Shown: piece by piece, positions 38,482-54,844 of the stretch
How the letters are laid out: the number at the start of each line of letters is the position of its first letter
How positions within the stretch are numbered: the first letter of the stretch is position 1
Source of the DNA: Elusimicrobiaceae bacterium
GTDB lineage: Bacteria > Elusimicrobiota > Elusimicrobia > Elusimicrobiales > Elusimicrobiaceae
DNA length: 64,000 bases
NCBI GenBank assembly: GCA_017961585.1
Contig: JAGCWX010000013.1
Coordinates: 1 to 64,000, forward strand
Direction: 5' to 3'
Made by a program: the position numbers and the translations under genes
Notes under the pieces: model-generated
Told to the model about the DNA's origin: nothing
Databases searched by the model: none
The model's input: the letters and a program-made list of their open reading frames with translations, nothing else

Positions 38482-39264
38482 ATGGACGAACTTTTTGAAA
38501 CGGATGATAAAAAGAAAAAAGTACCTAAACAAATTGGGCACTTGTACCGTAAGTTGTTCTTACTGGTATTTGCCGTGGCGTTACTGGCCCAGGGGCTGGT
38601 GATAGTGGAAAAAACACTTACGGATTATTATGACCGCTTGGCAGATTCATTCAAAGTGATTTTAACCGTAGATGATACTGCCGATGATGTCACTTTGCAA
38701 CAATGGGGCCAAACCCTGAGCCAAAAGCAGGATATTACCAGCGTGCATTTGCTTTCTTCGGAAGATGCCTTGGCGGTGGTTCGTCATAAAAACCCACAGT
38801 TAGTAGATGCCCTGTTGGCGTTGGGGAAAAACCAAATGCCGGCTTATTTTGAAATTACTTTGGCGACCCCGGCCCTGAATAATATCCGTCCGTTTGTGGA
38901 TAATTTGGACGCTGAATATGAAAGCTTAACGCCGCACTATAATTTGGCCCAGGCCAAAATGCTCTTTTACACGGGGCTTTGTGCAAAATTGATCCGTTTG
39001 ATAGGGCTTTTGTCCCTGCTGGCTTTTTTGGCTTTTATGTTTTTGGTAGAAGCTGCCCCTTACCCGGCACCTCATGCTTGGCGGGGGGGTGTTTCCGGCA
39101 TATTAGCGGGCGTTGTAGGAGCATTGCTGATAGGCGGGATTATTTATCCTACCGGATTTTTGCAGGAAATGTTACCGTATTTGACTTCCTGGTCGCGGCA
39201 GGCCTTGCTGCTTGTATTTTGCGGATTACTAGGGTGGACCTTGGCAAAATGGCAAAAATTTTAG
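38482..39264 (+). CDS. ftsX: FtsX-like cell-division membrane protein (divergent)
   Basis: A 260-residue protein with one N-terminal membrane helix (27-47), an extracellular domain (about 50-165; VILTVDDTADDV, SVHLLSSEDALAVV, KNQMPAYFEITL match the FtsX pattern) and three more helices (about 170-190, 205-226, 235-256). The cytoplasmic loop between helices 2 and 3 is shortened and lacks the usual REIEVMRLVGA-like segment that contacts the ATPase FtsE. No ftsE is adjacent. Placed before an EnvC-like protein and CtpA it resembles the ftsEX-envC-ctpA order. Called on domain pattern and context. Confidence 0.75.
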   Translation: MDELFETDDKKKKVPKQIGHLYRKLFLLVFAVALLAQGLVIVEKTLTDYYDRLADSFKVILTVDDTADDVTLQQWGQTLSQKQDITSVHLLSSEDALAVVRHKNPQLVDALLALGKNQMPAYFEITLATPALNNIRPFVDNLDAEYESLTPHYNLAQAKMLFYTGLCAKLIRLIGLLSLLAFLAFMFLVEAAPYPAPHAWRGGVSGILAGVVGALLIGGIIYPTGFLQEMLPYLTSWSRQALLLVFCGLLGWTLAKWQKF

Positions 39265-40403
39265 GGATTTTAATGGGGCTAGTGATGTTGGCGTCTTCGG
39301 CCTATGCCGATGATGCCGCGCAGCGTAAGCAAGAACTGGCCCAACTAAAAAACCAAGCCCAACAAAAAGAACAAGAACTGAAAAAATACAGAGAACAAGA
39401 AAAGAAAATTTCCAAGGAAATTACCGATTTGCAAAATAAAAAAGCCGAAGCAGAAAAACGCAAAAACAAAGTGGAAATGGATTTATCGCTATTGGAACAA
39501 AATTTACTTTCTATTGAAGAGAAACGGACCGCCCTCTCGCGCAGTATGCCTATGTGGCAGGGACTCGCCTGGCAAGAGTTGGTGCACTACTATTTGGAGC
39601 CGGCCTGTGTATCCTGCCCGGAAGAACATCCCATTGATACGGAAATTTTTATTGACCGCATGCTGACACACAAGGCGGTATTTGCTCAAGCCCTGCAGAA
39701 AGAAAATCAAGACGCCCAGGAACGTTTAGCCGATTTTAGCCAACGAAATAAACAATTGCAGGCGGAAAGCTCTCAGCTTAAAAAGGAGCAGGCGGTCATC
39801 TCTCAATCCTTTCAGAAAAAACAGCAAGATTTGAATGTTACTAAACGTAAGGTGGACGGCGTACGTAAGGAAATTAATGAGCTTAATAAATCCGCCACTG
39901 AGTTAAATAAATTGTTGGCCTCTTTTGAGCAGAAACGCCAAAAAGCGGCAAAGGGCGGGACTTCGTCCAAAAAATCAACAGGCCCCAAGATTAACGTGCC
40001 GCCTCATTCGCTCCCGTGGCCTGTTACCGGTAAGGTAATCAGCCAATTTGGTAAAGAGTACCGGGCCGACTTAAATACTTGGATTTTTAGAGACGGTATT
40101 AAAATTGCCGCTACGCACGGTTCCCCGGTGCGGGCCAGCGCGGCCGGTAGTGTAATTTATGCAGGCCCCTTCCGTTCTTATGGGAATGTGGTGATTATAG
40201 ACCATGCAAAAGGATTTTTTACGATTTACGGTTTCTTAAATACGATACAAGTATCGGTAGGAGATTCGGTAGCACAACAAGGTACGGTAGGGACTGTGGG
40301 AAAAGACTCTCAAGCCACCTCAGGTACCGGGCAAAGTGCCGTATATTTTGAAATGAGACAGGGAACCACAGCGGTAGATCCGCTAGATTGGTTAAAAAAA
40401 TAG
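39249..40403 (+). CDS. envC: EnvC-like murein hydrolase activator with degenerate LytM domain
   Basis: A 384-residue protein with a signal peptide (MAKILGILMGLVMLASSAYA), a long coiled coil at about 22-240 and a LytM/M23 domain at about 253-384. All zinc ligands are lost: the H-x3-D site reads FRDGIK, the YAH position reads YGF, and HxH reads AVY before FE. This matches EnvC/NlpD-type amidase activators rather than active endopeptidases. The start at 39249 gives a good signal peptide and overlaps ftsX by 16 nt; the long frame upstream of it is ftsX read in another frame. Confidence 0.88.
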   Translation: MAKILGILMGLVMLASSAYADDAAQRKQELAQLKNQAQQKEQELKKYREQEKKISKEITDLQNKKAEAEKRKNKVEMDLSLLEQNLLSIEEKRTALSRSMPMWQGLAWQELVHYYLEPACVSCPEEHPIDTEIFIDRMLTHKAVFAQALQKENQDAQERLADFSQRNKQLQAESSQLKKEQAVISQSFQKKQQDLNVTKRKVDGVRKEINELNKSATELNKLLASFEQKRQKAAKGGTSSKKSTGPKINVPPHSLPWPVTGKVISQFGKEYRADLNTWIFRDGIKIAATHGSPVRASAAGSVIYAGPFRSYGNVVIIDHAKGFFTIYGFLNTIQVSVGDSVAQQGTVGTVGKDSQATSGTGQSAVYFEMRQGTTAVDPLDWLKK

Positions 40404-40410
40404 AGGGAAT

Positions 40411-41787
40411 ATGAAACATCAAAAATTAAATAAATGGATAGCTGGTGCAGCTGTATTATTTTTCTTAGGGACGTTGTTCCCTTATGCGTATGGCGCAGTG
40501 GATAGCAGTTTGAAAAAATTGCGTACGCTAGTTGACGTGTTGGAATTTGTAAAAGAAAACTATGTGGAAACAACCGACACAGACCAATTAGTTGCTGGGG
40601 CCATCAAAGGGGTGGTGAATGAGTTGGATGATTTTTCCTCTTATTTGGATCCGAAAGATTACAAAGAATTGAAAAATGAAACCGAAGGTGAATTTGGCGG
40701 CTTGGGGATGCGTTTGCAAAAAGTGGATGGGTTCATTACGGTAATGACCCCGATGCCCGGAACCCCGGCCTTTAAAGCCAACATTATGCCACAAGATCGT
40801 ATCTTGCGGGTGGACGATCAGGACGTGTCCGACATGAAATTAGACGAAGCGGTGAGCTTGATGCGTGGCAAAGTAGGTAGTAAAGTGAAATTGACGATTG
40901 CCCGCAAAGACGACCAAGGGGAATATCAAACCTTGCCGGATATTACCCTCAAACGTGCTACGATTGTGCCCGAAGTAGTATACTACCGTATGTTGCCGGA
41001 TCACATTGGCTATTTGTATTTGGTGGATTTTTCGGGCCACAGTACCGATGAGATGAAGAAAGCCCTGGCCGATTTAACCAAACAAGGCATGCGTGCCTTG
41101 GTACTTGATTTGCGTTTTAACCCGGGGGGACTGCTCAAAGGGGCAGTAGAGGTTTCTAAATTATTTTTGCCGGCGGATAAGATGATTGTCTATACCCAAG
41201 GCCGCAAACAGGAATATTATCAAGAATATAAAACAACGGATAATCCACTATATCCCGAAACCCCCATGGCGGTGCTGATCAACCAGGGTTCGGCCAGCGC
41301 CAGCGAAATTGTATCCGGCGCGTTGCAAGATAACCAGCGTGCGTTTGTAGTGGGGCAACGTTCCTTTGGTAAAGCCAGCGTACAACAAGTGTTGCCGCTT
41401 TCAGGTGGGGCTGGGTTGCGCTTGACTATTGCTAAATATTACACACCTTCCGGGCGGTTGATTCAACGCAATTATCGCGATAAATCCAAAACGGATGAGG
41501 GCGGAATTTTGCCGGATGTGGAAGTAATTGTAGCACCGGAAGAAGAGGCGAAAGTTTTCATGCAATACAATGACGTGGTCTATACCCCTGGGCAACCCGT
41601 AAAGGCCATGCAATTTACTGCCAAAGACCCGGTATTGGATAAAGCGGTAAAAATTTTATCGGGTAAAATAACGTTAGAAGATGCCAAAAAAGCTTCTCAA
41701 GAAGAAGCTGCGGCGCGTAAAGCTAAAAAAGAGAATAAAAAAGAAGATAAAAATGCCGGTGCTCAACCCGCTCAAAAGGCAAAATAG
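40411..41787 (+). CDS. ctpA: C-terminal processing peptidase (S41)
   Basis: A periplasmic Ser/Lys protease of 458 residues with an N-terminal signal/anchor (about 10-30), a PDZ domain (about 85-170; GGLGMRLQKV, GTPAFKANI) and the S41 catalytic domain with the Ser in GSASASEIV near 294 and the Lys in SFGKASVQQ near 320. The C-terminus is Lys/Glu/Ala-rich. It sits in a row with the FtsX- and EnvC-like genes, so it may trim envelope or division proteins. Confidence 0.94.
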   Translation: MKHQKLNKWIAGAAVLFFLGTLFPYAYGAVDSSLKKLRTLVDVLEFVKENYVETTDTDQLVAGAIKGVVNELDDFSSYLDPKDYKELKNETEGEFGGLGMRLQKVDGFITVMTPMPGTPAFKANIMPQDRILRVDDQDVSDMKLDEAVSLMRGKVGSKVKLTIARKDDQGEYQTLPDITLKRATIVPEVVYYRMLPDHIGYLYLVDFSGHSTDEMKKALADLTKQGMRALVLDLRFNPGGLLKGAVEVSKLFLPADKMIVYTQGRKQEYYQEYKTTDNPLYPETPMAVLINQGSASASEIVSGALQDNQRAFVVGQRSFGKASVQQVLPLSGGAGLRLTIAKYYTPSGRLIQRNYRDKSKTDEGGILPDVEVIVAPEEEAKVFMQYNDVVYTPGQPVKAMQFTAKDPVLDKAVKILSGKITLEDAKKASQEEAAARKAKKENKKEDKNAGAQPAQKAK

Positions 41788-41788
41788 A

Positions 41789-42808
41789 ATGAAAGAAAAT
41801 TTTACCATTTTGGGAATAGAATCCACGTGCGATGAAACCTCCGCCGCGGTACTTAAGGGAGGGAAGATTTTATTGTCCAATGTGATCTATTCTCAAATTG
41901 AGGAACACAAAAAGTATCACGGTGTTGTGCCTGAACTAGCCAGCCGAGCCCATGCCGCTAAAATTGCTACCGTCATTGAGGAGGCATTGCAAAAGCACCC
42001 CATTGATTGTGTTGCTTTTGCCAGCGGACCGGGGTTGCCCGGCGGGCTGATGGTTGGGCGCGTAGCCGCAGAAACATTAGCGGCTTATAAGCAAGTACCG
42101 TTGATAGGGGTAAACCATTTGGAAGGACACATCTTTGCGTGTGATTTTGAAAACGGTGAAGTAAAGAACCGCTTGCAGTTCCCGTTAGTAGCCCTGGTGG
42201 TATCGGGCGGTCATACGGAATTGTGGTACGTAAAAGGATACGGGCAATATAAAGTGCTTGGAAAAACACGTGATGACGCCGCCGGAGAAGCTTTTGATAA
42301 AGTGGCCAAGCTTTTAGGGCTTGCCTACCCGGGCGGGCCGCAAGTATCCAAGCAGGCACTTTTGGGCCGGCGGGATGCAATTGATTTCCCGCGGCCGCTT
42401 TTGCCGGGTACGTGGGAATTTTCCTTCAGCGGAATTAAAACCTCGGTAAGTTATTATTTGCGCGATCATCAAAATTTTAGTGTACCGGATGTATGCGCCA
42501 GTTTTGAACAAGCTATGGTGGATACATTGGTTACTAAAACGTTGTTGGCAGCTAAGAAATATAAGGTGCGTCATATTGCAGTGGGGGGCGGAGTGGCAGC
42601 CAATGCATTGCTGCGCCAAACCATGCAAGAACAAGCCGCGTTGCAAGGCAAAAACGTGTATTTTGTGGAACGCAAATTATCTTCGGACAATGCCGCTATG
42701 ATTGCATTGGCAGCTTATAAAAAGTTAGAATACGCCCAGCAAACCGGTACCAAGGTACAAGCTAACATAGATATTAACCCAAATATGAAAGTAAAGAGCT
42801 GGAGCTAA
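41789..42808 (+). CDS. tsaD: tRNA N6-adenosine threonylcarbamoyltransferase
   Basis: The enzyme that completes t6A37 in tRNAs reading ANN codons; 339 residues. The metal-binding HLEGH near 110 and VSGGHTEL near 137 are clear, as is ILGIESTCDETS at the start. The ATG at 41789 follows the ctpA stop by one base; an in-frame upstream start would translate ctpA in another frame. Confidence 0.96.
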   Translation: MKENFTILGIESTCDETSAAVLKGGKILLSNVIYSQIEEHKKYHGVVPELASRAHAAKIATVIEEALQKHPIDCVAFASGPGLPGGLMVGRVAAETLAAYKQVPLIGVNHLEGHIFACDFENGEVKNRLQFPLVALVVSGGHTELWYVKGYGQYKVLGKTRDDAAGEAFDKVAKLLGLAYPGGPQVSKQALLGRRDAIDFPRPLLPGTWEFSFSGIKTSVSYYLRDHQNFSVPDVCASFEQAMVDTLVTKTLLAAKKYKVRHIAVGGGVAANALLRQTMQEQAALQGKNVYFVERKLSSDNAAMIALAAYKKLEYAQQTGTKVQANIDINPNMKVKSWS

Positions 42809-42823
42809 GTTTAAGGAGTAAAT

Positions 42824-44032
42824 ATGATTGTGTGGGTCATGCCGGATGCCGGCGATAAAAGTAAAGAAACCTATAATGCTTTTCTATCTTTATTTAGGAA
42901 GGAAAATCCGCAGATCAATGTATCTATGCGTGTGTTTACGCGCAACGTGTTGTGGCGGCGGATGTTTACCATCAAAAATCCTACGCACGAGGAAGAAGTG
43001 CCGGATGTGATTCAAATCCCGCATTATTGGACGGCACTCTTGGTGCGGGAAGGCGTGGCGGAAAATTTATCTCAATTGGACCCGGGATTATCGCTTACTT
43101 CGTGTGTGAAAGCGTTGAAAAACCATTGTTATAAACCCGGTACGAAGGATATTTATTCCTATCCTTGGTGGTTTGATATCAGTGCGTTGCATTACCGCGA
43201 AGACCACCTGAAATTGGTAACCAATCACCCCGAGAAAGACCTCTCCACCTGGGAAGGATTCCTGAAAATTTGCGCGGCCTTGCGCGAAAGATTTCAAAAT
43301 GTTCCCGGATATTATCCGGTGCAAAATAGCGATTGGCGCGGTTCGCTTTCCATGCGCAGTGCATTGCCTTGCGTATGGGGAAGAGGGGTGGACTTGCTGA
43401 CGGCAGATTTTAAGCGCACCTCCGTAGCCACCAAAGCGTTTAAAGAAGGCATCCGCGATTATATCAACTTGGCGTTGGAAAACTACATGCCTATCTTGCG
43501 TGAGCGTGGCTCTTTGGGAACCATGGTTTCCGGGCAGGCCAGTTTAATGATTTCGCGCAAGCAAGGGGTCGGCACGTTTGATGCCCGGCGCGGCATCCCG
43601 GTGCGAACCTTGCCGGTCCCGTCCACGGGGGATACGCGGGCGGCCTATTTATCGGGCATGAATTTGTTTGTCAACGTGCGCTCTCAACATAAAAAAGAAG
43701 CACTTAGTTTTATTAAGTTTTGCGCCCGGCCCGAGGTGCAAGCTTATTTGGCACGGACCTTGGAAGTGTTCCCCGCGTTTGAAGATGCTGTGGAATTATT
43801 TGTGCTTTCTTCGCCTTCTAAACGTTTGCGTGCGTATGAAAATATTTTACCGCTGGCCAAAACGTTGCCGAATTTAACCATTACCGGCACAATTATGGAA
43901 ATTTTAAAGCGTATTTTAGCTGTATGTGCTACACAAATTGTGGAGGGGCGTTTTACGCAGGCCTCGCTGGACCGCGAGCTGGACCTGGCCGCCAAAGAAA
44001 TAGAATATTTGTTGTCTATTTATGAGGGATAA
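42824..44032 (+). CDS. Solute-binding-protein fold lacking a signal peptide (cytoplasmic)
   Basis: A 402-residue homologue of family 1 extracellular (maltose/sugar type) binding proteins. It begins directly with the mature-type N-terminus (IVWVMPDAGDKSKETYNAF), then VPDVIQIPHYWTALLVREGV, YPWWFDISALHYRED, and late blocks KKEALSFIKFCARPEVQAYL. AAGGAG lies 6 nt before the ATG and only 15 nt separate it from tsaD, so there is no room for a secretion signal. No ABC permease is nearby. The next gene, 2 nt downstream, is a GAF-GAF-GGDEF protein, which suggests an internal ligand sensor acting with it. Ligand unknown. Confidence 0.8.
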   Translation: MIVWVMPDAGDKSKETYNAFLSLFRKENPQINVSMRVFTRNVLWRRMFTIKNPTHEEEVPDVIQIPHYWTALLVREGVAENLSQLDPGLSLTSCVKALKNHCYKPGTKDIYSYPWWFDISALHYREDHLKLVTNHPEKDLSTWEGFLKICAALRERFQNVPGYYPVQNSDWRGSLSMRSALPCVWGRGVDLLTADFKRTSVATKAFKEGIRDYINLALENYMPILRERGSLGTMVSGQASLMISRKQGVGTFDARRGIPVRTLPVPSTGDTRAAYLSGMNLFVNVRSQHKKEALSFIKFCARPEVQAYLARTLEVFPAFEDAVELFVLSSPSKRLRAYENILPLAKTLPNLTITGTIMEILKRILAVCATQIVEGRFTQASLDRELDLAAKEIEYLLSIYEG

Positions 44033-44034
44033 TT

Positions 44035-45546
44035 ATGTTTGATAAAAAATCCTACACACTTTATAAATTTCACAAACAATTAAACCAAGCGTTTCAAAAC
44101 AAGCGCGAATTATTGGAAAGTGCCTTGCCGGTGCTGCGCAATTTGTTTAAGCTGGACCGCATTTACTTTTTTGATTGGCAACAGGAGCGGGCGATTCTTT
44201 CGTTGCGAATGATGTGCAAAAAAGAATATTGCATGGACAAGCAGGAAGACATTTCCGTAATCGGTGAACCGGCTTTCTTAAAGCAACTGTTGCGCGAAGG
44301 CATTACCGAGACGACCGACCTGAGCTACCCTGCCATTTACGTGCTGGTGAAGTGGCAACGCCCCAGCATGGAACTGCGTGGCGGCGAAGTGCGCACGTAT
44401 ATGCAAGAAAAAGTAGGGGTGCTGCGTTTGGAACGCTTCCGCAAAAACCGTCCGTTTACGCCGCAGGAAAAGGAACTCATTCAAGCGTTGGGGCAAGAAA
44501 TTTCACACAATTTGCGCAACACGGAAATTGACCAGGCCAAAAACCAGCGTTTAAACGTGTCTACGGCGCTTAACGATTTGTCCACGGTGTTTGCATCTTC
44601 GTTGCGGCTTAACGACGGCTTGGAACTAATTTTGCAAGGGGTGCAAAAGTACTTCCGTTTTGACCGCGTGCGTTTGTATTTGACGGACTCTTACGGCCGG
44701 CGTGTTAAAAGTGCGTTGTGTGTGGATATTTCCGGCCAAGTAACGCACCGCAAAGGGGACGAAATTACCGAGCAAGAACAAGCCCTGGTGAAAGAGGTTT
44801 TTGACTCGGCCACTACGTACCGTTCTACCCGCAGTGTAATTTACATTCCCTTAAAAGTGCAGCGCAGCAAAGTAGGTTTTTTGGCGTTTGATAATATTTT
44901 GTCCCGGCGGCACATTGGGTATTTGGATTTTATTTCGTTGCAGCAGTTTGCCTCGCAAATGGCGCTTTCTATTGACAATGCGCGCTTGTTTGAACGCGTG
45001 CAAGAATTGTCTAATTACGACGAGCTTACCCGCCTGCCGGTGCGGCGTTATTTTAATGAAAAATTATCGGAAGAAATTTACCGTGCCAAGCGGTTTAATT
45101 TAACGCTGTCGCTAATGATTATTGACATTGATTTTTTCAAACAAATTAACGACAACTACGGCCACCAAATTGGGGACTGGGCTTTGCAAGAAGTCAGCCG
45201 GGTGATCCGTCATAGTTTACGTCAGACCGACGTGCCCTGCCGTTTTGGCGGGGACGAAATGGTCATCATGCTCCCCAGCACCAACAGTGAAGAATCCAAG
45301 GTAATTGCCAAACGTCTGCACGAGCGCATTACCGCCATTGTGCTGCCCACCAAGTATACCGGGGGGGAAGAAATCCATATTTCTATCAGCCAAGGGATTG
45401 CCACTTTCCCGTCGGATGCGTCCAGCACGGAAGAGCTTTTTGCGCAGGCAGACAAAGCGCTTTACGTGGTAAAGCAAAACGGGCGCGGGCACTTTGCCGT
45501 CTACCGCGAGGTGGCCGACCAAGTGCAGGGATACAGCAAAGAATAA
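44035..45546 (+). CDS. Diguanylate cyclase with two GAF domains
   Basis: A 503-residue soluble protein. Two GAF-like sensor domains span about 15-170 and 185-335, then the GGDEF domain 345-495. The active site is RFGGDEM (405-409; Met instead of the final Phe, still compatible with activity) and an inhibitory RxxD (RQTD, 396-399) lies five residues before it. DIDFFKQINDNYGHQIGD carries the metal ligand and substrate residues. It should make c-di-GMP from GTP with product inhibition. It starts 2 nt after the binding-protein gene, so the two are co-translated. Confidence 0.92.
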   Translation: MFDKKSYTLYKFHKQLNQAFQNKRELLESALPVLRNLFKLDRIYFFDWQQERAILSLRMMCKKEYCMDKQEDISVIGEPAFLKQLLREGITETTDLSYPAIYVLVKWQRPSMELRGGEVRTYMQEKVGVLRLERFRKNRPFTPQEKELIQALGQEISHNLRNTEIDQAKNQRLNVSTALNDLSTVFASSLRLNDGLELILQGVQKYFRFDRVRLYLTDSYGRRVKSALCVDISGQVTHRKGDEITEQEQALVKEVFDSATTYRSTRSVIYIPLKVQRSKVGFLAFDNILSRRHIGYLDFISLQQFASQMALSIDNARLFERVQELSNYDELTRLPVRRYFNEKLSEEIYRAKRFNLTLSLMIIDIDFFKQINDNYGHQIGDWALQEVSRVIRHSLRQTDVPCRFGGDEMVIMLPSTNSEESKVIAKRLHERITAIVLPTKYTGGEEIHISISQGIATFPSDASSTEELFAQADKALYVVKQNGRGHFAVYREVADQVQGYSKE

Positions 45547-45559: not shown

Positions 45560-45714
45560 GCGTGGAAGATGCTGAATCAAGTTCAGCATGACACGTGTTG
45601 TGAAACTAAATAGAGTTGTCATCCCAAACTTGATTTGGGATCTTCGACGCTGGTAGTTACGTAAGAAACGACGAACGGCAGGCGCGGAAGCCCCTGAAAC
45701 AAGTTCAGGGATAA
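45560..45714. repeat. Palindromic repeat island B
   Basis: Three half units of the family seen at 5894-5986: 45560-45593 (GCGTGGAAGAT, hairpin GCTGAA/TTCAGC, TGACA), 45617-45650 (TGTCAT, hairpin CCCAAA/TTTGGG, ATCTTCGACGC) and 45682-45714 (GCGCGGAAG, hairpin CCCTGAA/TTCAGGG). Flanks are conserved while hairpin arms change together. Confidence 0.85.
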
Positions 45715-45929: not shown

Positions 45930-48900
45930 ATGAAAAAAATTACTTCTTTCCTTCGCACTATTTTTACCAAACAGGCGGCAACCCCGTCCATTTTAACTAT
46001 CTTACTTCTTGTGTCCGCAGCACCGCTGTGGGCCCAAACCGTCAACACCGTAAGCACCGGTGTGTGGTATAATGACGGCGTAAATGCAGCCACTGACGGT
46101 ACGGATTATGCCTTGTATTGTAATAATACTGGTCCTGAAGTTACTGGAGACAATAACAAAGATAGAAGTTTTGTATATACCCCTGCTCCGAAAAGTAATA
46201 GAAACCAAAATGATCCGTGGGCTAGCTCGGCCTTGATTGAGTACGATCAACCCTATCCTTCTCCAACTGCTGCCAATAATTACCCCAACCACTGCTTGGG
46301 GTTGTGTGCGGCTTATACATGTAGCAACTTGCCTGTGGGGCAGACCACGTATTCCGTGGCATTCCCGTTGCAGCGCATTACGTTTGATATTTTTAAATAT
46401 TACAACGGCCAAAACCCCAAAAACCCGGACCAAGCCCCTACCATCCGCTCCATTGATGTGTACCCGGCGCAGGATGTGACTGAACCGAGTAAGTATACCT
46501 GCGGTTCATACCGCTGTTCCAACGCGGGACGGGATGATACTAATGAATCTCAAATTGCAGAATGTTTAGGCGCCCACTGGGTTTGTGATGGGACAACCAA
46601 GCCGGTAACATCAACTACGAACGTAACTTGTGCTGTAAGTTATAATTCGGATACTGCAGAATTGGATTGGTATTGCCAGGATTCAAGTAAAAATGATTAT
46701 ACGAGCTATGTTTCTTGCGATCTTGATCCAAGCCAACTGACTGATACAACAGTGGTGGCGATTTGTAGAGGAGGTGGAGCAACAAAGCAGTGCACATTGA
46801 AGGGATCGGGTGCGCACAATCCGTGCACTATAAACGATTTACAAGTTGCTCAAACAAATGGTTCTTATTGTTGGCCCACTACAATGACTCGTGAGGAAGC
46901 TTGTGGTACTGGGCCGGGAAAGACACCAACTAAAGGGACCAGTGGTGGATCTGTGGTTGGCGGGCAAACCTGTTGGCCATATGCGGACGTGGTGTGGCGT
47001 AAAAGTGCGGGGATATGTACTATTCAGTCCGATGCTGACGTATTTAGAGGTTGCTGCCAACGTGAAGGCCATAGTGATTGTTTAGTATTTGATAACAACG
47101 GGGCTGAAACCAACGAACAGCTTAACTTCTGCACCGGGTGGGATGGATTTTATGAAATTGCCGGTGAATTTGGTAAATCCAACGGGCAATTCGGGTTCCG
47201 CGCTACGGCGTATACCAACGTCCCTTCGGACGGTGTGATTGCGGACCGCATTGAAATTGAAGAAACGGGCGTTTACCCCGGCCACAATGGCGCAACCCAA
47301 ATCCCGATACAAATTGACGTGACTAACGTGCACACTGTGCGCAGTACGCCTTCGCTGATTGGGTCCATTACGCCGGTTGCCGCGCAACCTTATACATTTA
47401 CCTATCGTTTAAGTAAAGATGCGGATGTGCGCATTGCTATCTTTGATGCATCCACCGCAGATAATGCTGCTTATGCGTATGATGTCGTTCCGGGGACTAA
47501 TAATAGTACTAACCAAGCAAGTTTTGCCGCCGGCGGCGATTACGAGGCCGCTACAGGTGTAATCGTCCGTACGTTAGTGGACTGGCAGCCGCGCACCGGC
47601 GAAGGTATTAAAGGAACTGAAAAAGATACCCAAATTGCGGATTTTGACTCTTGGGATGGCCGCCACGACGAAGGATTCTTGTTGCCGGCCGGTAACTATA
47701 TTGCCTCTATTCAAGCTAAATCTCAAGACGAATGGGATGGGATAGATTTCTCGCGCGCGGTTACGCGCCAAGTATCCTTGGACCCCTTGAAACTGACGGA
47801 TGTGCGGGTAACCGGGCTGAACAAGCAATCCACCGCGTATGCTACCATTTCTTACGTGCCGACGGAATCCGCCACCGTGTATTGGGAAGTATATACCCCC
47901 GGTACTGTATTTGAAGGGCCCAATGGCGTATCCGAAATTTTAACCGATTCCGCTACTGCTACCGGGACCGGGCCTGCCGTTAAGGCAAATACGGGTTCTT
48001 TGGTATATCGCCACATAGAGCAAAAAACCCGCCAAATGAACTATACCGACAAGTGGGACGGCACCTGCCAAGTGTCTGATGTCACCAACAAGGCGTTAGC
48101 TCCGGCTACCATTGCTAAAGGGGCTACCTTCCCGAGTGGTGCTTATGAATCTGATGGGGTCACCCCTAAGACGGGTACGTGTAATGAGGATGCCGGTTGT
48201 ACCTATTATTATCACGTTTATCAGCCCAATGTTTCATCGTGTGTGCGGTATTATGCCCTCCACGAAACATTGCCAAATGGCACGGTTTGTACAAAGGATA
48301 ATTTGTTGTATAGTAATGCTACGGGGATGTGCGAAGAAAACTATGCTTACGGTGCCCCGATGCCGGATGGAAACTACGTTTATGTATTGTGGGCAGAAAT
48401 ACCTTATAATGGTAAATACGTAAACGCTATCGGGTCTGATGATGGGAAACCCAAATTTACAACGGGTGCAACCTGTTCCAAAACAGGTAAAGAAATTAAT
48501 AACCAATGTTTTACTGGTGTAAAGACCTTAAAATATACCGTGGGTACCATGGAGTTGGAACGCGGCTTGGTGGGCATTACGTTGCAGCCCGTCAGCTACG
48601 CTACCATTGGTTCTAGCCCTACGGCGTATGGGCTTGATCCGTTTATCTTTAAATACTCGCTGGATAGGCCTGCCCAAGTGATTGCCACGGTTGAAAATAC
48701 CGCCGGCGTAGTGGTAAAACACTTGACGCTGGAAGAAGGCGAGCCGAATGTTTCCCAACAGCTTAATACCATCACTTGGGACGGGCGCGACGATCAAGGC
48801 CGTATGGTCTACCCCGGAACGTATATGTTCCGCGTGAAGGCCATGGACGCTATGTTCCCCGCGCAAAGCAACGAAGCCATTACCACCTTCCCTGTGGATA

Positions 48901-51350
48901 TGTACCGCGTGGTGGATATGGAAACCACCCACGTATATGGGGATGCCAATGCCAAGGCAACTATTTCGTATCACTTGTCCAAACCCATGAACGTGCAGAT
49001 CAATATATATAATAAGGATGTTGTCATCCCGGATTATAATGGTCTGACCGGGGAGTATAGTGATTATGAAGTGTTATCGGTGTGTAACGGGAAGCTGGAA
49101 CATGTGGCAAAGGAAGATTGGGACAAAGCTACTGGTCGCCCTAGCGTATCCGTTGATTGCTCGGATGTTCCCTCGCAGACCATGCCTAGAGAGATTGTTA
49201 CAAATGGATCTATTGTGGAATATAAGGAGTATGGTAGCCCTGCTAAGTATTATCGTAAGACTTGGACGGCTGCGGAAGAATATAACTTGGATCCGACCAA
49301 ATACCGTGGAGATGACGGAAAAGAATATTCTATTCCTAAATATACCATTTACTTGAAAATGGAACAAATTAAAACCACCACCCAAGGTGCCGGCGTGGTA
49401 TGGCCGCCCCGCATCTGCGATAAGAAAACGGATGGTACGGATCGCGGTACGGAGAGCATTTTTACAGGTGGGGCTGTTGATCCGGCCAAAGTAAACCAGT
49501 ATAAAGTTGCTTGTATCTACGTAAACGATAAAACATTTACCAATTACCCGGCGAATGCTGTAACGGCTGCCTCGGGCGCGGTGGATGTGCGCTTGCAACC
49601 GATCCACACGATTGAACGCTCCAGCTTGAAGACCGGCGATGAGGCCCTTGTGATGGAAGAATGGGATGCGTTGTACTTCTACAACCCCACTCCGTCCGGC
49701 TCCAAGTATACACAAGAACAAATTAACAAGTGTAAAAACGCCACCGAAAAGGCCAACTGCCCGTACGGTATGATCCCGGACGGTGCGTATCCGTTCTACA
49801 TCTCGGCCCGCTCCAACGAGCCCTTCAACCGCTACTATTATAGTAGGCAGATGGATGGAGTCAGCAACGTGTACAGCGTTTCGGACCAACCGTTTAGAAC
49901 TGCGGCTGAAGTCAAACAAGAAAGCTACCTCTACGCGTCGGATAAGTCGGTCGGGAACATTTATGTAACCCGCGGCGCGGTGTACTTCTTGGACGACTCG
50001 GTACATGTGTACTCCAACTCGCCGCAGATGTTTAATACTTCTACCACCACCATGAAGTATCTGCCGCCGTACGAGATTAACTTCTCTATCTCCCGCGCGG
50101 CTACGGTAGAAATTGCCATCGTGGCGTTGCAGGATGGCGTCTGCTCGCCGATTACCGACAACGTCAAATCCGGCAAAGTAAATACCTTTGAATCCCGCAC
50201 CAACGTGGCGGGGGACATCTGCCGTGTGCTTTCGTATAAGCCCAAGAATATGTCCTCTCAAGCGTTTGATGCTACCGCCATCCACAAAGTAATTTGGGAC
50301 GGCACCGACCATAACGGCAACTACGTCAAATCCGGCATCAATTACGAAATCCGCTTAACGGCCCGTAACTACCCGGATGCCACCATGTACGAGCCCACGG
50401 TCAAGAGTATTACCACCACGGTCAACATCATGAAAGTGTTTGACCTCTTAGAGGTGGATAACTACGCTATCTTCCAACGTGACACGGATATGAAGATTGG
50501 TTACCAGGTATCTGTGCCGATGAAAGTAGCTGTTCAAATTTTGAAACCCGGTACCACCATCTACGACTGGACCAAAGGTACCCTGCGCGACCCTGCCACC
50601 GGCAAGGAAGTAAAAGATATCAACGACGTGCTTGTGCGCGCGATTGTGGGTATCCGCTCGAGCAATATGCTCATCCAAGAAGTGTGGGACGGCCGCGACT
50701 ACGCTCAACAGGAAGTGCCCGACGGCGTTTACCCCTTCCGCTTCGTAACCGTGCCCGGTAACGAAACGGCCGCTATTGACAGCGTAACGGGTGCTATTGC
50801 TGAAGGATTTGGCGACGATTCCTCCGAAGATTCAACCAAGTGGAAAGTAAACTACGTGGCCGATGATCAAGAATATACTACCTTGCATAAAGCGACGGTA
50901 GCTATCGGCGACGGGCGGTTCGTCTGCGAAGATTGGAAGAAGACTGTGTTCTTCTACCCCAACCCGCTGCGCGATGCCAGCAAAGGTACCTTGGAAATTA
51001 CCAAGATGCCCGTGCCCGGTACGGTATCTATTAAGTACTTCAACTTGGCCGGCGACCTGGTGCGCGATAGCGACTACACCTGTGTGGATGCCAATAACTT
51101 CCAAACCACCATGGGTAAGGATTTCTACTTCCAACCCGATAACAACATCAGCGATACGCGTGTGCCGCTTGATGAAAACGGTGACTTGGCTATTAAGAAC
51201 ATCCGCAACGCTGCCTTGCGCTGCAAATGGGACCGCACCAACCAGCACGGCAAGAAAGTAGCACGCGGTGTGTATTTCGGGCTGATTGACTTTAAGGCCT
51301 TTAACGGGCGCGAACATTGCCAAAAGGTGGTTAAAATCTTAATCCCCTAA
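45930..51350 (+). CDS. Giant secreted surface protein with FlgD-like repeats and a T9SS-like C-terminal domain
   Basis: 1806 residues with a signal peptide (about 1-35, ending PLWAQ). The first 470 residues are Cys-rich with low similarity to known families. From there on, FlgD-Ig-like modules recur, each with W-D-G-R/T, G, then V/P-x-G-x-Y: Trp at 575, 950, 1456, 1586 and 1767. The last 110 residues (FFYPNPLR, then a beta-rich repeat with VARGVYFG, ending KVVKILIP) resemble type IX secretion C-terminal sorting domains and FlgD-like ends. A PorV-like protein follows immediately. Likely exported to the cell surface, possibly as adhesin or sheath; function unknown. The ribosome-binding site is weak. 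Confidence 0.85.
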   Translation: MKKITSFLRTIFTKQAATPSILTILLLVSAAPLWAQTVNTVSTGVWYNDGVNAATDGTDYALYCNNTGPEVTGDNNKDRSFVYTPAPKSNRNQNDPWASSALIEYDQPYPSPTAANNYPNHCLGLCAAYTCSNLPVGQTTYSVAFPLQRITFDIFKYYNGQNPKNPDQAPTIRSIDVYPAQDVTEPSKYTCGSYRCSNAGRDDTNESQIAECLGAHWVCDGTTKPVTSTTNVTCAVSYNSDTAELDWYCQDSSKNDYTSYVSCDLDPSQLTDTTVVAICRGGGATKQCTLKGSGAHNPCTINDLQVAQTNGSYCWPTTMTREEACGTGPGKTPTKGTSGGSVVGGQTCWPYADVVWRKSAGICTIQSDADVFRGCCQREGHSDCLVFDNNGAETNEQLNFCTGWDGFYEIAGEFGKSNGQFGFRATAYTNVPSDGVIADRIEIEETGVYPGHNGATQIPIQIDVTNVHTVRSTPSLIGSITPVAAQPYTFTYRLSKDADVRIAIFDASTADNAAYAYDVVPGTNNSTNQASFAAGGDYEAATGVIVRTLVDWQPRTGEGIKGTEKDTQIADFDSWDGRHDEGFLLPAGNYIASIQAKSQDEWDGIDFSRAVTRQVSLDPLKLTDVRVTGLNKQSTAYATISYVPTESATVYWEVYTPGTVFEGPNGVSEILTDSATATGTGPAVKANTGSLVYRHIEQKTRQMNYTDKWDGTCQVSDVTNKALAPATIAKGATFPSGAYESDGVTPKTGTCNEDAGCTYYYHVYQPNVSSCVRYYALHETLPNGTVCTKDNLLYSNATGMCEENYAYGAPMPDGNYVYVLWAEIPYNGKYVNAIGSDDGKPKFTTGATCSKTGKEINNQCFTGVKTLKYTVGTMELERGLVGITLQPVSYATIGSSPTAYGLDPFIFKYSLDRPAQVIATVENTAGVVVKHLTLEEGEPNVSQQLNTITWDGRDDQGRMVYPGTYMFRVKAMDAMFPAQSNEAITTFPVDMYRVVDMETTHVYGDANAKATISYHLSKPMNVQINIYNKDVVIPDYNGLTGEYSDYEVLSVCNGKLEHVAKEDWDKATGRPSVSVDCSDVPSQTMPREIVTNGSIVEYKEYGSPAKYYRKTWTAAEEYNLDPTKYRGDDGKEYSIPKYTIYLKMEQIKTTTQGAGVVWPPRICDKKTDGTDRGTESIFTGGAVDPAKVNQYKVACIYVNDKTFTNYPANAVTAASGAVDVRLQPIHTIERSSLKTGDEALVMEEWDALYFYNPTPSGSKYTQEQINKCKNATEKANCPYGMIPDGAYPFYISARSNEPFNRYYYSRQMDGVSNVYSVSDQPFRTAAEVKQESYLYASDKSVGNIYVTRGAVYFLDDSVHVYSNSPQMFNTSTTTMKYLPPYEINFSISRAATVEIAIVALQDGVCSPITDNVKSGKVNTFESRTNVAGDICRVLSYKPKNMSSQAFDATAIHKVIWDGTDHNGNYVKSGINYEIRLTARNYPDATMYEPTVKSITTTVNIMKVFDLLEVDNYAIFQRDTDMKIGYQVSVPMKVAVQILKPGTTIYDWTKGTLRDPATGKEVKDINDVLVRAIVGIRSSNMLIQEVWDGRDYAQQEVPDGVYPFRFVTVPGNETAAIDSVTGAIAEGFGDDSSEDSTKWKVNYVADDQEYTTLHKATVAIGDGRFVCEDWKKTVFFYPNPLRDASKGTLEITKMPVPGTVSIKYFNLAGDLVRDSDYTCVDANNFQTTMGKDFYFQPDNNISDTRVPLDENGDLAIKNIRNAALRCKWDRTNQHGKKVARGVYFGLIDFKAFNGREHCQKVVKILIP

Positions 51351-51362
51351 GGCGGGTGTTCG

Positions 51363-51371
51363 TGGTATAAT
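51363..51371 (+). promoter_or_regulatory. Extended -10 promoter of the PorV-like gene
   Basis: TGGTATAAT with TG at 51363. The start would fall near 51378, leaving only about 4 nt (AGGA) before the ATG at 51382. This would give the pilus cluster its own transcription start inside the larger operon. Confidence 0.6.
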
Positions 51372-51381
51372 ATTATAAGGA

Positions 51382-52368
51382 ATGAAAAACTTTATGAAGA
51401 TATCAAAACTTGTAGTTGCTAGTTTAACGGTGGGGTTGCTAAGCACCCCTGCCATGGCTATTCACAAGAATGCCGGTACCAGCGCAGGCGCGTTCTTAAA
51501 AATTGACGCCGGCGCCCCGCGTGCCCAAGCATTAGGGAATGCCTTCGTCTCCGTGGCCGACGGGCCCGAGGCGTTGTTCTGGAACCCGGCCGGTTCGGCT
51601 GCCGCTACCACGCGCGAAATCCAGTTTACCTATATGGATTACTTGCAAGGGTACAAAGCCCGTACGTTGGCGTATCTGCAACCGATCGGTAAGACGATTA
51701 TCGGGTTAAGCGTCAACTACATGGATATGAAAAACTTTGATTTTCGCGATTGGCAAGGCCGTCCCAATCCGGAAGTAGGTATCCCGGTGCAGAACTTTGT
51801 GGGTAGCTTGTCCATTGCGCGCGGTTTTATCAACCAAAAATTGCAATTGGGTGCTACCGCTAAATACATTACAGAACGTTTGGACAACGGCTCGGGCCAT
51901 AACCATTATGACAACGTCGGTTTTGACGTGGGTGCCAAATTGCGCTTGGTAAATTGGTTGGGTTTAGGCGGTGCGTTGGTAAACATCGGCGATAGAGACG
52001 AAATGCCGCGCGGCCTTCGCTTAGGGGCTGACTTAAATACCCGCTACTTTACGATTTCCGGCGAATATATGAAATATGTGGACGATAAAGCCCGCTATGG
52101 TGTAGGTTTGGAAATCCACATCCCCGAAGATTTGTTGCAAGTGGCTCGTTTTGACTTGCGTGTAGGTTACTATACGCGTGATAACGCCGGTATCAACGAA
52201 GACAGTTGGGTCAAACAAGTAGGGTTGGAAGAAACCTCCCGCGTTTCCTTTGGGTTTGGTATTTACAGCGCCGAACTGTTTGGATATGGGGCCTCGCTTG
52301 ATTATGCCGTTACGCCGTTTGGGGCGTTGGGTACGTCGCAACAGATTGCCGTATCCGTGCAATTTTAA
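51382..52368 (+). CDS. PorV/PorQ-family outer membrane protein
   Basis: A 328-residue protein with a signal peptide (cut near AMA, residue 28) and a beta-barrel-like sequence with alternating pattern. It opens with GTSAGAFLKIDAGAPRAQALGNAFV and EALFWNPAGSAA, the signature of PorV/PorQ proteins (UPF0164), which act with type IX secretion substrates in Bacteroidota. Its position right after a protein with a T9SS-like end is suggestive. A second in-frame Met at codon 5 is an alternative start. Confidence 0.88.
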   Translation: MKNFMKISKLVVASLTVGLLSTPAMAIHKNAGTSAGAFLKIDAGAPRAQALGNAFVSVADGPEALFWNPAGSAAATTREIQFTYMDYLQGYKARTLAYLQPIGKTIIGLSVNYMDMKNFDFRDWQGRPNPEVGIPVQNFVGSLSIARGFINQKLQLGATAKYITERLDNGSGHNHYDNVGFDVGAKLRLVNWLGLGGALVNIGDRDEMPRGLRLGADLNTRYFTISGEYMKYVDDKARYGVGLEIHIPEDLLQVARFDLRVGYYTRDNAGINEDSWVKQVGLEETSRVSFGFGIYSAELFGYGASLDYAVTPFGALGTSQQIAVSVQF

Positions 52369-52370
52369 GT

Positions 52371-52553
52371 ATGAAGGAGCTGGGTAAAGTACTTCAAAAT
52401 AAAAAAGGGCAGGCCGCTGTTGAATATATTTTAGTGGCAGCGGGGCTGATGGGAATGTTCCTAGCATTTTATGTAACGTATTCCCACTTAGTACCGCAAC
52501 AGTTTGAACAGGGCGCCAAAATTATTTTGTCGGACTATAGCCCCCAAAGTTAA
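52371..52553 (+). CDS. Flp-like minor pilin
   Basis: A 60-residue prepilin-like protein: a short basic leader KKG, cleavage before QAAVEY (Glu at +5), then a hydrophobic helix (ILVAAGLMGMFLAFYVTY). It starts 2 nt after the PorV-like gene without a clear ribosome-binding site, so coupled translation is likely. A minor subunit of the Tad pilus is the best guess. Confidence 0.7.
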   Translation: MKELGKVLQNKKGQAAVEYILVAAGLMGMFLAFYVTYSHLVPQQFEQGAKIILSDYSPQS

Positions 52554-52579
52554 GAGATTTAAAAAATTAGGAGGAGTTT

Positions 52580-52804
52580 ATGAAATACATCGTTGCATTA
52601 CAAAACAAAGCCGATATGCTCAAAGCCAAAGCTTTAGGCATGGTAGCTAAAAAAGAAGGGCAGACTACCATTGAATACGTAATGATTATTGGCGTAATCG
52701 TGGTAGTAGCCGGTTTGGCTATGGTGGCCATGAGATCTTTGGTGCCGGATGTGTTTGAAAGCATTAAAGCCAAAATCTTAGGCGGTATCAATAACGCTAA
52801 CTAA
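52580..52804 (+). CDS. Flp family type IVb pilin
   Basis: A 74-residue protein, the size of Flp pilins. The prepilin site is KKEG before QTTIEYV (Glu at +5), followed by a hydrophobic helix (IIGVIVVVAGLAMVAM). Preceded by AGGAGG. Probably the main pilin of the Tad machine encoded downstream. The peptidase that would process it (TadV/CpaA) is not in the window. Confidence 0.85.
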   Translation: MKYIVALQNKADMLKAKALGMVAKKEGQTTIEYVMIIGVIVVVAGLAMVAMRSLVPDVFESIKAKILGGINNAN

Positions 52805-52807
52805 GTT

Positions 52808-53293
52808 ATGCATATTATTCATAGGAGGCGCGGACAAGTAACTGTAGAGTTAATGCTTATTTTGCCTGTATTTATGCTGCTTATTTTCTTTGTGCTTGAA
52901 TACGGCAATATAGCTTACCGCACCTTGGTATTAAACCACGCTTCCTATGAATTTGCACGCATTGCTTCGCTAACGGGGGTAGATAAGCCCAGCGGCAATG
53001 CAAACCGAACCATAATGGTTCAGAAAATTGATCAGGCCAAACGCAAGATTTTTGGGGCCGAGGCCGAACGTCTTAATGTACAGGTAAAGGTGGAAACAAC
53101 CGGTATAGACCCGATGTATAAACGGCACCGCCACCAAGACGTGATTGTAACGGTGATTTATCCGGTAAGGTTGGCGTTCCCGGGGACAAGTTGGTTGTTG
53201 GCGGATGCGCCCCGCCGGGAAGGAATGCGAAAAATAAAAGCTACCGCGCGTATGCCGGTGGAGAAATCGTATCTGAGTTCAGATATGAAATAA
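52808..53293 (+). CDS. TadE-like pseudopilin
   Basis: A 161-residue protein with a prepilin-type start: RRRG before QVTVELML (Glu at +5), a single hydrophobic helix, and a soluble C-terminal part with YEFARIASLTG, typical of TadE/TadG-like proteins. It starts 3 nt after the Flp pilin gene. Confidence 0.85.
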   Translation: MHIIHRRRGQVTVELMLILPVFMLLIFFVLEYGNIAYRTLVLNHASYEFARIASLTGVDKPSGNANRTIMVQKIDQAKRKIFGAEAERLNVQVKVETTGIDPMYKRHRHQDVIVTVIYPVRLAFPGTSWLLADAPRREGMRKIKATARMPVEKSYLSSDMK

Positions 53294-53330
53294 CCGATTT
53301 GATTTATAATTTAAGTTGTAAGGAGAATAC

Positions 53331-54086
53331 ATGAGAAGAGGTTTTTTATTACCCTTGTTACTGGCTATTTTGGCAGCCATTGTATATGCAATGATTGTCA
53401 GCAGTGCTGAGAAAAAATTGAATGCGTCCAAAAACGTGAAATACGTATTTGTTCCGACGCGTGATATTAAAGAACGTGAAGTCATTAAAAGGGATTTTGT
53501 AAAAACCGTCCCTGTGCCGGCTGCCTACCTACAGAAAGATGCTTTTACTTACAGCACGGAAGCAGATTTTAAAGCGATTGAAAACGCGGTAGCCCGTATT
53601 CAAATCCCCAAAGGAAACCAAATTTCCAAATATGCTATTACCTCCCTTTCGCCGGAAGCGGGGCTTTCCAGCAAAATCCCGGTGCAAATGAGAGGATACA
53701 TCATTACCGATGTCCCGATAGCGACCGCCAGCTTAATCAAACCGGATGATAACGTAGATATTTTGTTTACGTTTAAGGCCGATATGAAAGACGGTTCTCA
53801 ACAAAACGTGGCTGTTACCCTTTTGCAAAACATCAAAGTGCTTGGTGTGGGGGGCGATTTAGGACAAGGTTTGGATGCTAAAACCGCCAGCTCCCTTAAA
53901 AACAAAGACGAAGAGGCCTCTGCTTATTCGGATAGTACGGCGTTGGCGTTGTCTCTTTCTCCGCGTGATGCGCAATACTTGGCCTTGGCCCAACAACAGG
54001 GTGAAATTTCGGTCATCTTACGTTCTCACGGGGATGTAACCAACTATATGATGGAGATTGCTACTTTCCAAAAATTATTTAATTAA
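53331..54086 (+). CDS. cpaB: Flp pilus assembly protein CpaB/RcpC
   Basis: A 251-residue periplasmic protein with an N-terminal signal anchor and an SAF-type domain (VFVPTRDIKEREVIKRDFV), followed by VDILFTFKA and LSPRDAQYLALAQQQGEISVILR, the typical CpaB blocks. It helps the secretin function in Tad systems. AAGGAG lies before the ATG. Confidence 0.9.
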   Translation: MRRGFLLPLLLAILAAIVYAMIVSSAEKKLNASKNVKYVFVPTRDIKEREVIKRDFVKTVPVPAAYLQKDAFTYSTEADFKAIENAVARIQIPKGNQISKYAITSLSPEAGLSSKIPVQMRGYIITDVPIATASLIKPDDNVDILFTFKADMKDGSQQNVAVTLLQNIKVLGVGGDLGQGLDAKTASSLKNKDEEASAYSDSTALALSLSPRDAQYLALAQQQGEISVILRSHGDVTNYMMEIATFQKLFN

Positions 54087-54097
54087 TGGGATGAAAC

Positions 54098-54844
54098 ATG
54101 ATTAATAAAAAGTTTACTTATGGCGTTTCATTATCAGTTTTACTAATTAGTTTGCTCGCTCCGTCTTGCGCGCATGCTAAGAAGACACGTTTAGTGGCAG
54201 TAAGTGCCGACGTTGTCGAAATCAGCGGAACCCTGCAAAGCGTGAAAGGGTTCTCCTGGAACCAGCTCTTCGATTTTGAAGAAGCGACGATCCCGGGCAT
54301 TTTGTCTTTGGGTGAATTTGAACGTAAAACGGCGGTAGCTACCCGTTTGCGTTTGATGGAAACAGAAGGCCGCGCTCAAGTGCTTTCTAACCCCAAGATT
54401 GTTACCTCCTCGGGTAGTGCCGCTAAAATTACGGTAGGGGGCCGCGTGCCGATACCGGTGGTAAACAACCAGGGGGTAGGGTCCCAGTTGGAAGACTATG
54501 GTATTTTGCTCAACGTGATGCCTACCATCATTCCGGAACGCAATAACATCATTGACTTACAAGTTCAGCTCTCCGTATCTACGGTGGACTATTCTCGTAC
54601 GGTTATGATTGGTACCGCCACGGCACCTTCTTTCACCAACCGCGACGTAGAAACCCACGTAGAATTAAACAGCGGGGAAACGTTGGTAATTGGCGGACTC
54701 AAAAGCAGCGCTCGCAACGTCAGTGAAGACCGCGTGCCGTTCTTAGGGCGCATTCCGCTTTTAGGTTTACTCTTTAAGAATAAAGACGTTACCGAAGAAC
54801 AACGTTCTTTGTTCTTGTTCATTACGGTTGAAATTGTAGAGTAG
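54098..54844 (+). CDS. Short secretin-like protein (CpaC position)
   Basis: A 248-residue protein with a signal peptide (cut near AHA, residue 27). The region 85-248 matches the secretin gate domain: QVLSNPKIVTSSGSAAKITVGGRVPIP, LNVMPTII, ETLVIGGL, and VPFLGRIPLLGLLFKNK. The N0/N1 and BON domains that normally make CpaC about 450 residues are missing. It may form a minimal pore or be an accessory part, with a full secretin elsewhere. Confidence 0.85.
   Translation: MINKKFTYGVSLSVLLISLLAPSCAHAKKTRLVAVSADVVEISGTLQSVKGFSWNQLFDFEEATIPGILSLGEFERKTAVATRLRLMETEGRAQVLSNPKIVTSSGSAAKITVGGRVPIPVVNNQGVGSQLEDYGILLNVMPTIIPERNNIIDLQVQLSVSTVDYSRTVMIGTATAPSFTNRDVETHVELNSGETLVIGGLKSSARNVSEDRVPFLGRIPLLGLLFKNKDVTEEQRSLFLFITVEIVE

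What the first reader, a model, noticed from the sequence alone, without database searches (positions are those of the whole stretch)
42824..45546. Cytoplasmic sugar-binding-protein fold coupled to a GAF-GAF-GGDEF diguanylate cyclase
The first protein has the fold of ABC solute-binding proteins but starts at the mature N-terminus with its ribosome-binding site directly behind tsaD, so it has no signal peptide. No ABC transporter is adjacent. Its stop is 2 nt from the cyclase start. Periplasmic binding proteins are known to act as ligand sensors for membrane receptors; a cytoplasmic one translated together with a soluble cyclase would be a different arrangement. It could report internal maltodextrin or another metabolite (malQ, glgA and a sugar transporter are in the window) to c-di-GMP, and the next genes are surface and pilus genes. 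Intact RxxD and GGDEM suggest a working enzyme.
Basis: partly seen in the sequence, partly recalled or inferred. Interest (0 to 1): 0.8.

Follow-up and report, generated by a model that had tools for sequence, protein, structure and literature searches.

The report
Cytoplasmic sugar-binding protein paired with c-di-GMP cyclase
A protein built like the sugar catchers that bacteria normally export for import systems stays inside the cell in this gut bacterium and its relatives, and it is always encoded right before an enzyme that makes the signal c-di-GMP, so it is probably an internal sensor rather than part of a transporter.

Summary
ORF 42824-44032 has an ABC solute-binding-protein (SBP) fold. 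An in-frame stop 12 nt upstream leaves no room for a signal peptide. ORF 44035-45546 is a soluble GAF-GAF-GGDEF protein, 2 nt downstream. The pairing is real and old. In 96 loci with the SBP, the cyclase is the next gene in 92; in the other 4 the contig ends. These cover all of the order Elusimicrobiales examined, other families of Elusimicrobiota, and two genomes of a second small group. Every cyclase-linked SBP lacks a signal peptide. Almost every unlinked homologue has one, and the two sets separate cleanly in a tree (100/99). The window's genome has no sugar-type ABC permease, and its only canonical GGDEF motif is in this cyclase. Closest solved relatives bind cellodextrins and beta-glucosides, not maltodextrins. 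Deep-branching cytoplasmic members keep the sugar-stacking tryptophans; in the window's lineage these became Arg and Gln, so the ligand has probably changed. In two deep lineages the pair directly follows sugar-importer genes. Best reading: a cytoplasmic ligand-receptor subunit of a soluble diguanylate cyclase, a cytosolic counterpart of periplasmic NspS-MbaA. Physical contact, ligand and enzyme activity are untested. New variant of a known kind.

The parts
42812..42814 (+). in-frame TAA 12 nt before the SBP start; rules out a longer N-terminus
   Evidence: sequence
42813..42818 (+). AAGGAG ribosome-binding site of the SBP gene, directly behind the tsaD stop (42806-42808)
   Evidence: sequence
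42824..44032 (+). cytoplasmic solute-binding-protein homologue, 402 aa, no signal peptide
42941..42943 (+). codon of Arg40, in the place of the sugar-stacking Trp41 of the beta-glycoside-binding protein; Arg/Lys in all 32 Elusimicrobiales rows examined
43028..43030 (+). codon of Trp69, equivalent to pocket Trp67; invariant in 49/49 cytoplasmic members
43175..43177 (+). codon of Asp118, equivalent to pocket Glu117; Asp/Glu in 45/49
43958..44023 (+). C-terminal helix of the SBP (residues 379-400); the motif E..YLLS.Y is conserved in the cytoplasmic family and mostly absent from exported homologues; candidate cyclase contact (inferred)
44024..44029 (+). GAGGGA, probable ribosome-binding site of the cyclase inside the last codons of the SBP gene (translational coupling, inferred)
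   Evidence: sequence
44035..45546 (+). soluble GAF-GAF-GGDEF diguanylate cyclase, 503 aa
44101..44454 (+). first GAF-like domain (about residues 23-140), from the structure model; only a marginal Pfam hit
44608..44970 (+). second GAF domain (about residues 192-312)
45013..45489 (+). GGDEF domain
45220..45231 (+). I-site RxxD (RQTD)
45247..45261 (+). active-site signature GGDEM
38482..42808 (+). conserved upstream genes: ftsX-like (no Pfam hit), M23-peptidase-like, ctpA-like and tsaD-like; the same order throughout Elusimicrobiales and in several other families (names by resemblance and synteny)

Best explanation
The two genes encode a soluble ligand-receptor/cyclase pair. The first protein is a solute-binding protein that lost its export signal and its transporter. 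It sits in the cytoplasm, closes its two lobes on an intracellular ligand, and binds the soluble GAF-GAF-GGDEF cyclase, probably at the N-terminal GAF module. This alters the dimer geometry of the cyclase through the long linker helix and so controls c-di-GMP synthesis. The ancestral ligand was probably a beta-linked gluco-oligosaccharide such as a cellodextrin. In the window's order the pocket is remodelled (stacking Trp to Arg and Gln), so the ligand there is probably a more polar or charged sugar, for example a sugar phosphate, uronic acid or cell-wall fragment. Shown: co-conservation, absence of signal peptide, absence of a cognate transporter, intact cyclase and I-site motifs, purifying selection. 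Inferred: physical contact, ligand binding, direction of control.
For: Pairing without exception: 92 of 96 loci have the cyclase next, the other 4 end at a contig edge; median SBP stop to cyclase start about 6 nt, with overlapping starts in several lineages. The pair persists where all the other neighbours have changed: 8 loci without tsaD upstream. Cyclase-linked SBPs all lack an export signal while unlinked homologues carry Sec/Tat or lipoprotein signals, apart from cut-off rows and one unclear row; the two sets are one split of the tree, 100/99. The genome has no sugar-type permease, only a Dpp/Opp-type pair, and no other SBP_bac_8 protein. Cyclase motifs are intact in every full-length homologue where the motif scan returned a sequence. 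dN/dS is about 0.03-0.1 for SBP pairs, similar to the cyclase and to TsaD. Pocket residues Trp69 and Asp/Glu118 are conserved and Arg/Lys40 is fixed in the order. In two deep lineages the pair directly follows two BPD_transp_1 permeases with an exported SBP upstream. One PilZ receptor and one GGDEF-EAL protein show a c-di-GMP network.
Against: No complex could be modelled or measured. Trp41 and the SGPW tryptophan, the sugar-stacking residues of solved relatives, are lost in the window's class, so ligand binding there is uncertain. The cyclase has two GAF domains of its own that could be its only sensors. The fifth residue of GGDEF is Met and activity is not shown. No ligand is known.
Confidence: 0.62

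Rival explanations
1. The SBP has become a ligand-free protein-interaction subunit: it holds, stabilises or localises the cyclase, and the remodelled pocket no longer binds a small molecule.
For: The stacking tryptophans are lost in the whole class of the window, although kept in deep lineages; the SGPW Trp is kept in 25 of 26 exported homologues. Some of the strongest family-specific conservation is in the C-terminal helix, not the cleft.
Against: Trp69 is invariant and Asp/Glu118 nearly so; Arg40 (Lys in a few) is fixed at the old Trp41 position, which looks like a new specificity rather than decay.
Confidence: 0.17
2. The ligand is a cell-wall turnover fragment (for example a GlcNAc-MurNAc-type beta-1,4 disaccharide), and the pair reports peptidoglycan recycling to c-di-GMP.
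For: Throughout the order the pair follows ftsX-like, M23-like and ctpA-like genes; the closest solved relatives bind beta-linked disaccharides; an Arg in the pocket could meet a carboxylate. The genome has three GH3 proteins, one of a NagZ-like size.
Against: The cell-wall neighbours are absent in the deep lineages, where an ABC sugar importer or a glycoside hydrolase and glycan-binding proteins (L118) flank the pair. No direct evidence of any ligand.
Confidence: 0.12
3. The two genes are only co-expressed; the SBP acts alone as an intracellular binding or storage protein and never touches the cyclase.
For: No physical evidence of contact exists.
Against: The pair stays together, often with overlapping ends, across many families, two classes and a second small group, also where no other neighbour is kept. 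A chance operon would have broken up.
Confidence: 0.06
4. It is an ordinary transport SBP whose start is mis-called, or which is exported by a non-classical route.
For: Fold and family are those of transport SBPs.
Against: In-frame stop 12 nt upstream; no signal peptide in any cyclase-linked homologue; no sugar-type permease in the genome.
Confidence: 0.03

Closest known systems
NspS-MbaA (Vibrio cholerae, Sinorhizobium meliloti)
   Same: A solute-binding protein not used for transport, encoded by a gene that overlaps the next gene, for a GGDEF protein; ligand state controls c-di-GMP (PMC9993111).
   Different: NspS is periplasmic and PotD-like; MbaA is a membrane protein with a periplasmic domain and GGDEF-EAL. 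Here neither protein has an export or membrane signal, the SBP is of the CbpB/beta-glycoside family, and the cyclase is GAF-GAF-GGDEF.
Periplasmic PBP-domain cyclases and phosphodiesterases (CdgH, RmcA; also ArtI-STM1987)
   Same: PBP-type receptor linked to c-di-GMP turnover.
   Different: CdgH and RmcA receptors are fused and periplasmic. A 2022 review states that PBP-clan domains in c-di-GMP proteins are periplasmic and that only SBP_bac_3 had been studied (PMC8846402).
CbpB of Clostridium thermocellum and Thermus thermophilus beta-glycoside-binding protein
   Same: Closest solved relatives; L080 cytoplasmic SBP versus CbpB E 4.5e-60, family profile versus 7c63 E 5.6e-69; same fold and part of the pocket.
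   Different: Those are exported receptors of ABC importers; the window protein lacks the signal peptide and the two stacking tryptophans.
SgrR-type transcription factors (SgrR, DsvR)
   Same: A solute-binding-protein domain used as an intracellular sensor (described in PMC13060122).
   Different: SBP_bac_5 domain fused to a DNA-binding domain; here a free-standing SBP_bac_8 protein next to a cyclase.
SiaC-SiaD (Pseudomonas aeruginosa)
   Same: A separate protein binds and activates a diguanylate cyclase (7e6g title, Foldseek hit).
   Different: SiaC is not a solute-binding protein (recalled, not tested).

Membership tests
ABC-transporter solute-binding proteins (SBP_bac_1/SBP_bac_8) | two-lobed SBP fold and sequence homology | tested here: met
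   Pfam SBP_bac_8 63.5 bits over cut-off 27; Foldseek E 1e-28 to 7c67
ABC-transporter solute-binding proteins (SBP_bac_1/SBP_bac_8) | exported (signal peptide or lipobox) | tested here: not met
   stop codon 12 nt upstream; no signal in any cyclase-linked homologue
ABC-transporter solute-binding proteins (SBP_bac_1/SBP_bac_8) | cognate membrane permeases | tested here: not met
   only a Dpp/Opp-type permease pair in a 98% complete genome
Diguanylate cyclases (GGDEF) | GGDEF domain with GG[DE]E active-site signature | tested here: met
   TIGR00254 172 bits over cut-off 37; GGDEM in the window, GGDE/GGEE wherever the scan returned a motif
Diguanylate cyclases (GGDEF) | RxxD inhibitory site | tested here: met
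   RQTD five residues before GGDEM; RxxD in the homologues
Diguanylate cyclases (GGDEF) | c-di-GMP synthesis | not testable with these tools
   no assay possible
NspS-MbaA type SBP/GGDEF systems | SBP gene directly before or overlapping the GGDEF gene | tested here: met
   92 of 92 readable loci
NspS-MbaA type SBP/GGDEF systems | periplasmic SBP | tested here: not met
NspS-MbaA type SBP/GGDEF systems | membrane-anchored GGDEF(-EAL) partner with periplasmic domain | tested here: not met
   soluble GAF-GAF-GGDEF, no membrane segment seen, no EAL
NspS-MbaA type SBP/GGDEF systems | physical SBP-cyclase interaction controlled by ligand | not testable with these tools
   no complex prediction or assay available
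SgrR-type cytoplasmic SBP-domain regulators | DNA-binding domain fused to the SBP domain | tested here: not met
   whole protein is SBP; no other domain found

The most novel reading that the evidence does not exclude
An ancient, phylum-wide family of free-standing cytosolic solute-binding proteins acts as the ligand receptor of a soluble diguanylate cyclase. A transport receptor was converted into an intracellular metabolite sensor for c-di-GMP, first for beta-gluco-oligosaccharides and later, in Elusimicrobia, for a different polar ligand.
Probability: 0.55. Interest if true: 0.8.

Novelty: new variant of a known kind. Interest (0 to 1): 0.7.

Why it matters
Solute-binding proteins are treated as extracytoplasmic by definition, and reviewed PBP-domain c-di-GMP receptors are periplasmic. 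A whole lineage that keeps one inside the cell, in strict one-to-one linkage with a cyclase, shows a route by which transport receptors become internal sensors. It also gives a poorly studied gut and environmental phylum a concrete input to its c-di-GMP signalling: in the window's genome this cyclase is the only one with a canonical GGDEF motif. The clean split between exported, unlinked and cytosolic, linked homologues makes the ligand switch directly testable by swapping pocket residues.

Tried and rejected
Mis-called start: rejected by the in-frame stop and homologues. Orphan transport SBP: rejected, no sugar-type permease in the genome. Chance neighbours: rejected. Maltodextrin sensor: not supported; relatives bind beta-glucosides and the stacking Trps are gone. 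SBP-like hits with 750-790 aa frames, first suspected to be SBP-cyclase fusions, turned out to be classic exported SBPs; the two read in full (L035, L036) continue into permease-like sequence. Frames of 723-753 aa at L072, L073 and L075 are only long open frames around a normal cytoplasmic SBP followed by a cyclase. Papers: four open-access searches on the combination found no description of a cytosolic SBP with a cyclase; the library lacks most subscription papers, so absence is weak evidence. The genome-wide scan used only two peptide patterns, so rarer occurrences in other phyla could be missed.

Full report
What is there. The window lies in a 1.49-Mb, 98% complete genome whose relatives are Elusimicrobiota (record titles). 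ORF 42824-44032 encodes 402 aa and ORF 44035-45546 encodes 503 aa. The first has AAGGAG at 42813-42818 behind the tsaD stop and an in-frame TAA at 42812, so translation cannot begin earlier. A GAGGGA lies in its last codons, in front of the second ATG. Pfam places the first in SBP_bac_8/SBP_bac_1; its AlphaFold model has mean pLDDT 93.5 and matches the Thermus beta-glycoside-binding protein and CbpB best among solved structures. The second has GGDEF and one GAF by Pfam, and its model shows a GAF-like N-terminal unit, a long helix, a second GAF and GGDEF without membrane helices; the top Foldseek match is a phytochrome-activated cyclase.

Conservation of the pair. The SBP is found in 59 of 61 closest genomes, 43 of 43 of the good ones. 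The loci that could be read there show the order ftsX-like, M23-like, ctpA-like, tsaD-like, SBP, cyclase. A phylum-wide profile search and fetched neighbourhoods extend the pair to other families of the class, and to an Endomicrobiales MAG and another Elusimicrobia MAG outside the class (L080/L111, L083/L112). Two genomes of another small group also carry it: L118, titled Caldiserica bacterium, and G312/L152. Counting deduplicated loci, 96 hold the SBP, 92 have the cyclase immediately downstream, and in 4 the contig ends; tsaD is upstream in 83 and absent in 8. Starts and stops overlap in several lineages. The linkage therefore belongs to the pair and not to the neighbourhood.

Location. None of the cyclase-linked SBPs has a credible signal peptide: most have a stop within a few codons of the start, and longer upstream frames are mostly hydrophilic, with a short hydrophobic stretch in L033 and a weaker one in L083/L112, both before the conserved start. 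Homologues without a cyclase neighbour almost all carry Sec, Tat or lipoprotein signals; the exceptions are rows cut by contig ends and one unclear row, L139. In a tree of 49 cytoplasmic and 26 exported rows the two kinds are one split with support 100/99. The root is unknown, so I infer but do not show that the cytoplasmic kind is derived.

No transporter. A search of the whole genome for BPD_transp_1 found only two permeases, which by sequence are of the Dpp/Opp type, and no second SBP_bac_8 protein. The SBP cannot be a normal importer subunit here.

The cyclase. RxxD and GGDE/GGEE are kept in every full-length homologue where the motif scan returned a sequence. In the genome there are three GGDEF proteins; the others read SADNF in a GGDEF-EAL protein and GGDDF in a REC-GGDEF protein, so the window protein is the only one with a canonical motif. 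One PilZ protein with RxxxR and DxSxxG is present, and one EAL. SBP and cyclase are both under purifying selection, dN/dS about 0.03-0.1.

The pocket. The family profile hits the beta-glycoside-binding protein 7c63 at 5.6e-69 and CbpB at 5.6e-66; the Endomicrobiales member hits CbpB at 4.5e-60. In CbpB two tryptophans stack on the sugar (PMC9601137); by my count of the alignment they correspond to Trp41 and the SGPW Trp of the Thermus protein. In deep-branching cytoplasmic members both are kept (8/8 Trp; 7 Trp and 1 Tyr); in family f1, the window's own, they are Arg (19/19) and Gln (17/19); in f2 Arg/Lys at the first; in the rest of the class mixed. Trp67 is invariant (49/49) and Glu117 is Asp/Glu in 45/49. 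I read this as an ancestral beta-glucan sensor whose ligand changed in Elusimicrobia; loss of ligand binding is the main alternative.

Context. In L080 and L083 the pair directly follows two BPD_transp_1 permeases, with an exported SBP upstream of them (in L080 with an MFS gene between). In L118 a glycoside-hydrolase-like gene lies directly upstream and a gene with weak glycan-binding-domain hits next to it. In the window, glgA is upstream and a large surface protein, a PorV-like protein and what look like Tad-pilus genes are downstream (names by resemblance).

Known relatives. NspS-MbaA is the nearest system: an SBP gene overlapping a GGDEF-EAL gene, but periplasmic and membrane-bound (PMC9993111). 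A 2022 review describes PBP-clan domains in c-di-GMP proteins as periplasmic (PMC8846402). SgrR-type regulators show that an SBP domain can serve inside the cell (PMC13060122). I found no report of a free-standing cytosolic SBP with a soluble cyclase, within an open-access library only. Hence: new variant of a known kind.

Uncertainty. Nothing here measures contact, ligand or activity. The spread beyond Elusimicrobiota rests on a narrow pattern scan plus one small group.

Noticed in passing
L080 10788-15467 (-); L083 10877-13887 (-): Exported SBP plus two BPD_transp_1 permeases (sugar-importer type) directly upstream of the cytoplasmic SBP-cyclase pair in two deep-branching genomes.
   Followed up: yes
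L035, L036 (read in full); also L085, L101, L102, L105, L134, L135, L145 (frame length only): Exported SBP that continues into permease-like sequence in one polypeptide of about 730-790 aa (MalE-MalF-like fusion).
   Followed up: partly
L044 5555-7810; L045 6101-7066: The other two GGDEF proteins of the genome have non-canonical motifs (SADNF in a GGDEF-EAL protein, GGDDF in a REC-GGDEF protein).
   Followed up: partly
L127 1483-1950: The single PilZ protein of the genome keeps RxxxR and DxSxxG and lies near a pilin-like gene.
   Followed up: no
window 45571-45650: Palindromic repeat GCTGAATCAAGTTCAGCATGAC just after the cyclase; 20 copies with up to 2 mismatches in the genome, none for the reversed control; folds with z = -3.8.
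   Followed up: partly
window 45930-59704: 1806-aa surface protein, PorV-like protein and what look like Tad-pilus genes downstream; the first two are syntenic in many relatives.
   Followed up: no
L118 3679-5892: Glycoside-hydrolase-like gene and a gene with weak glycan-binding hits beside the pair in a MAG titled Caldiserica bacterium.
   Followed up: partly
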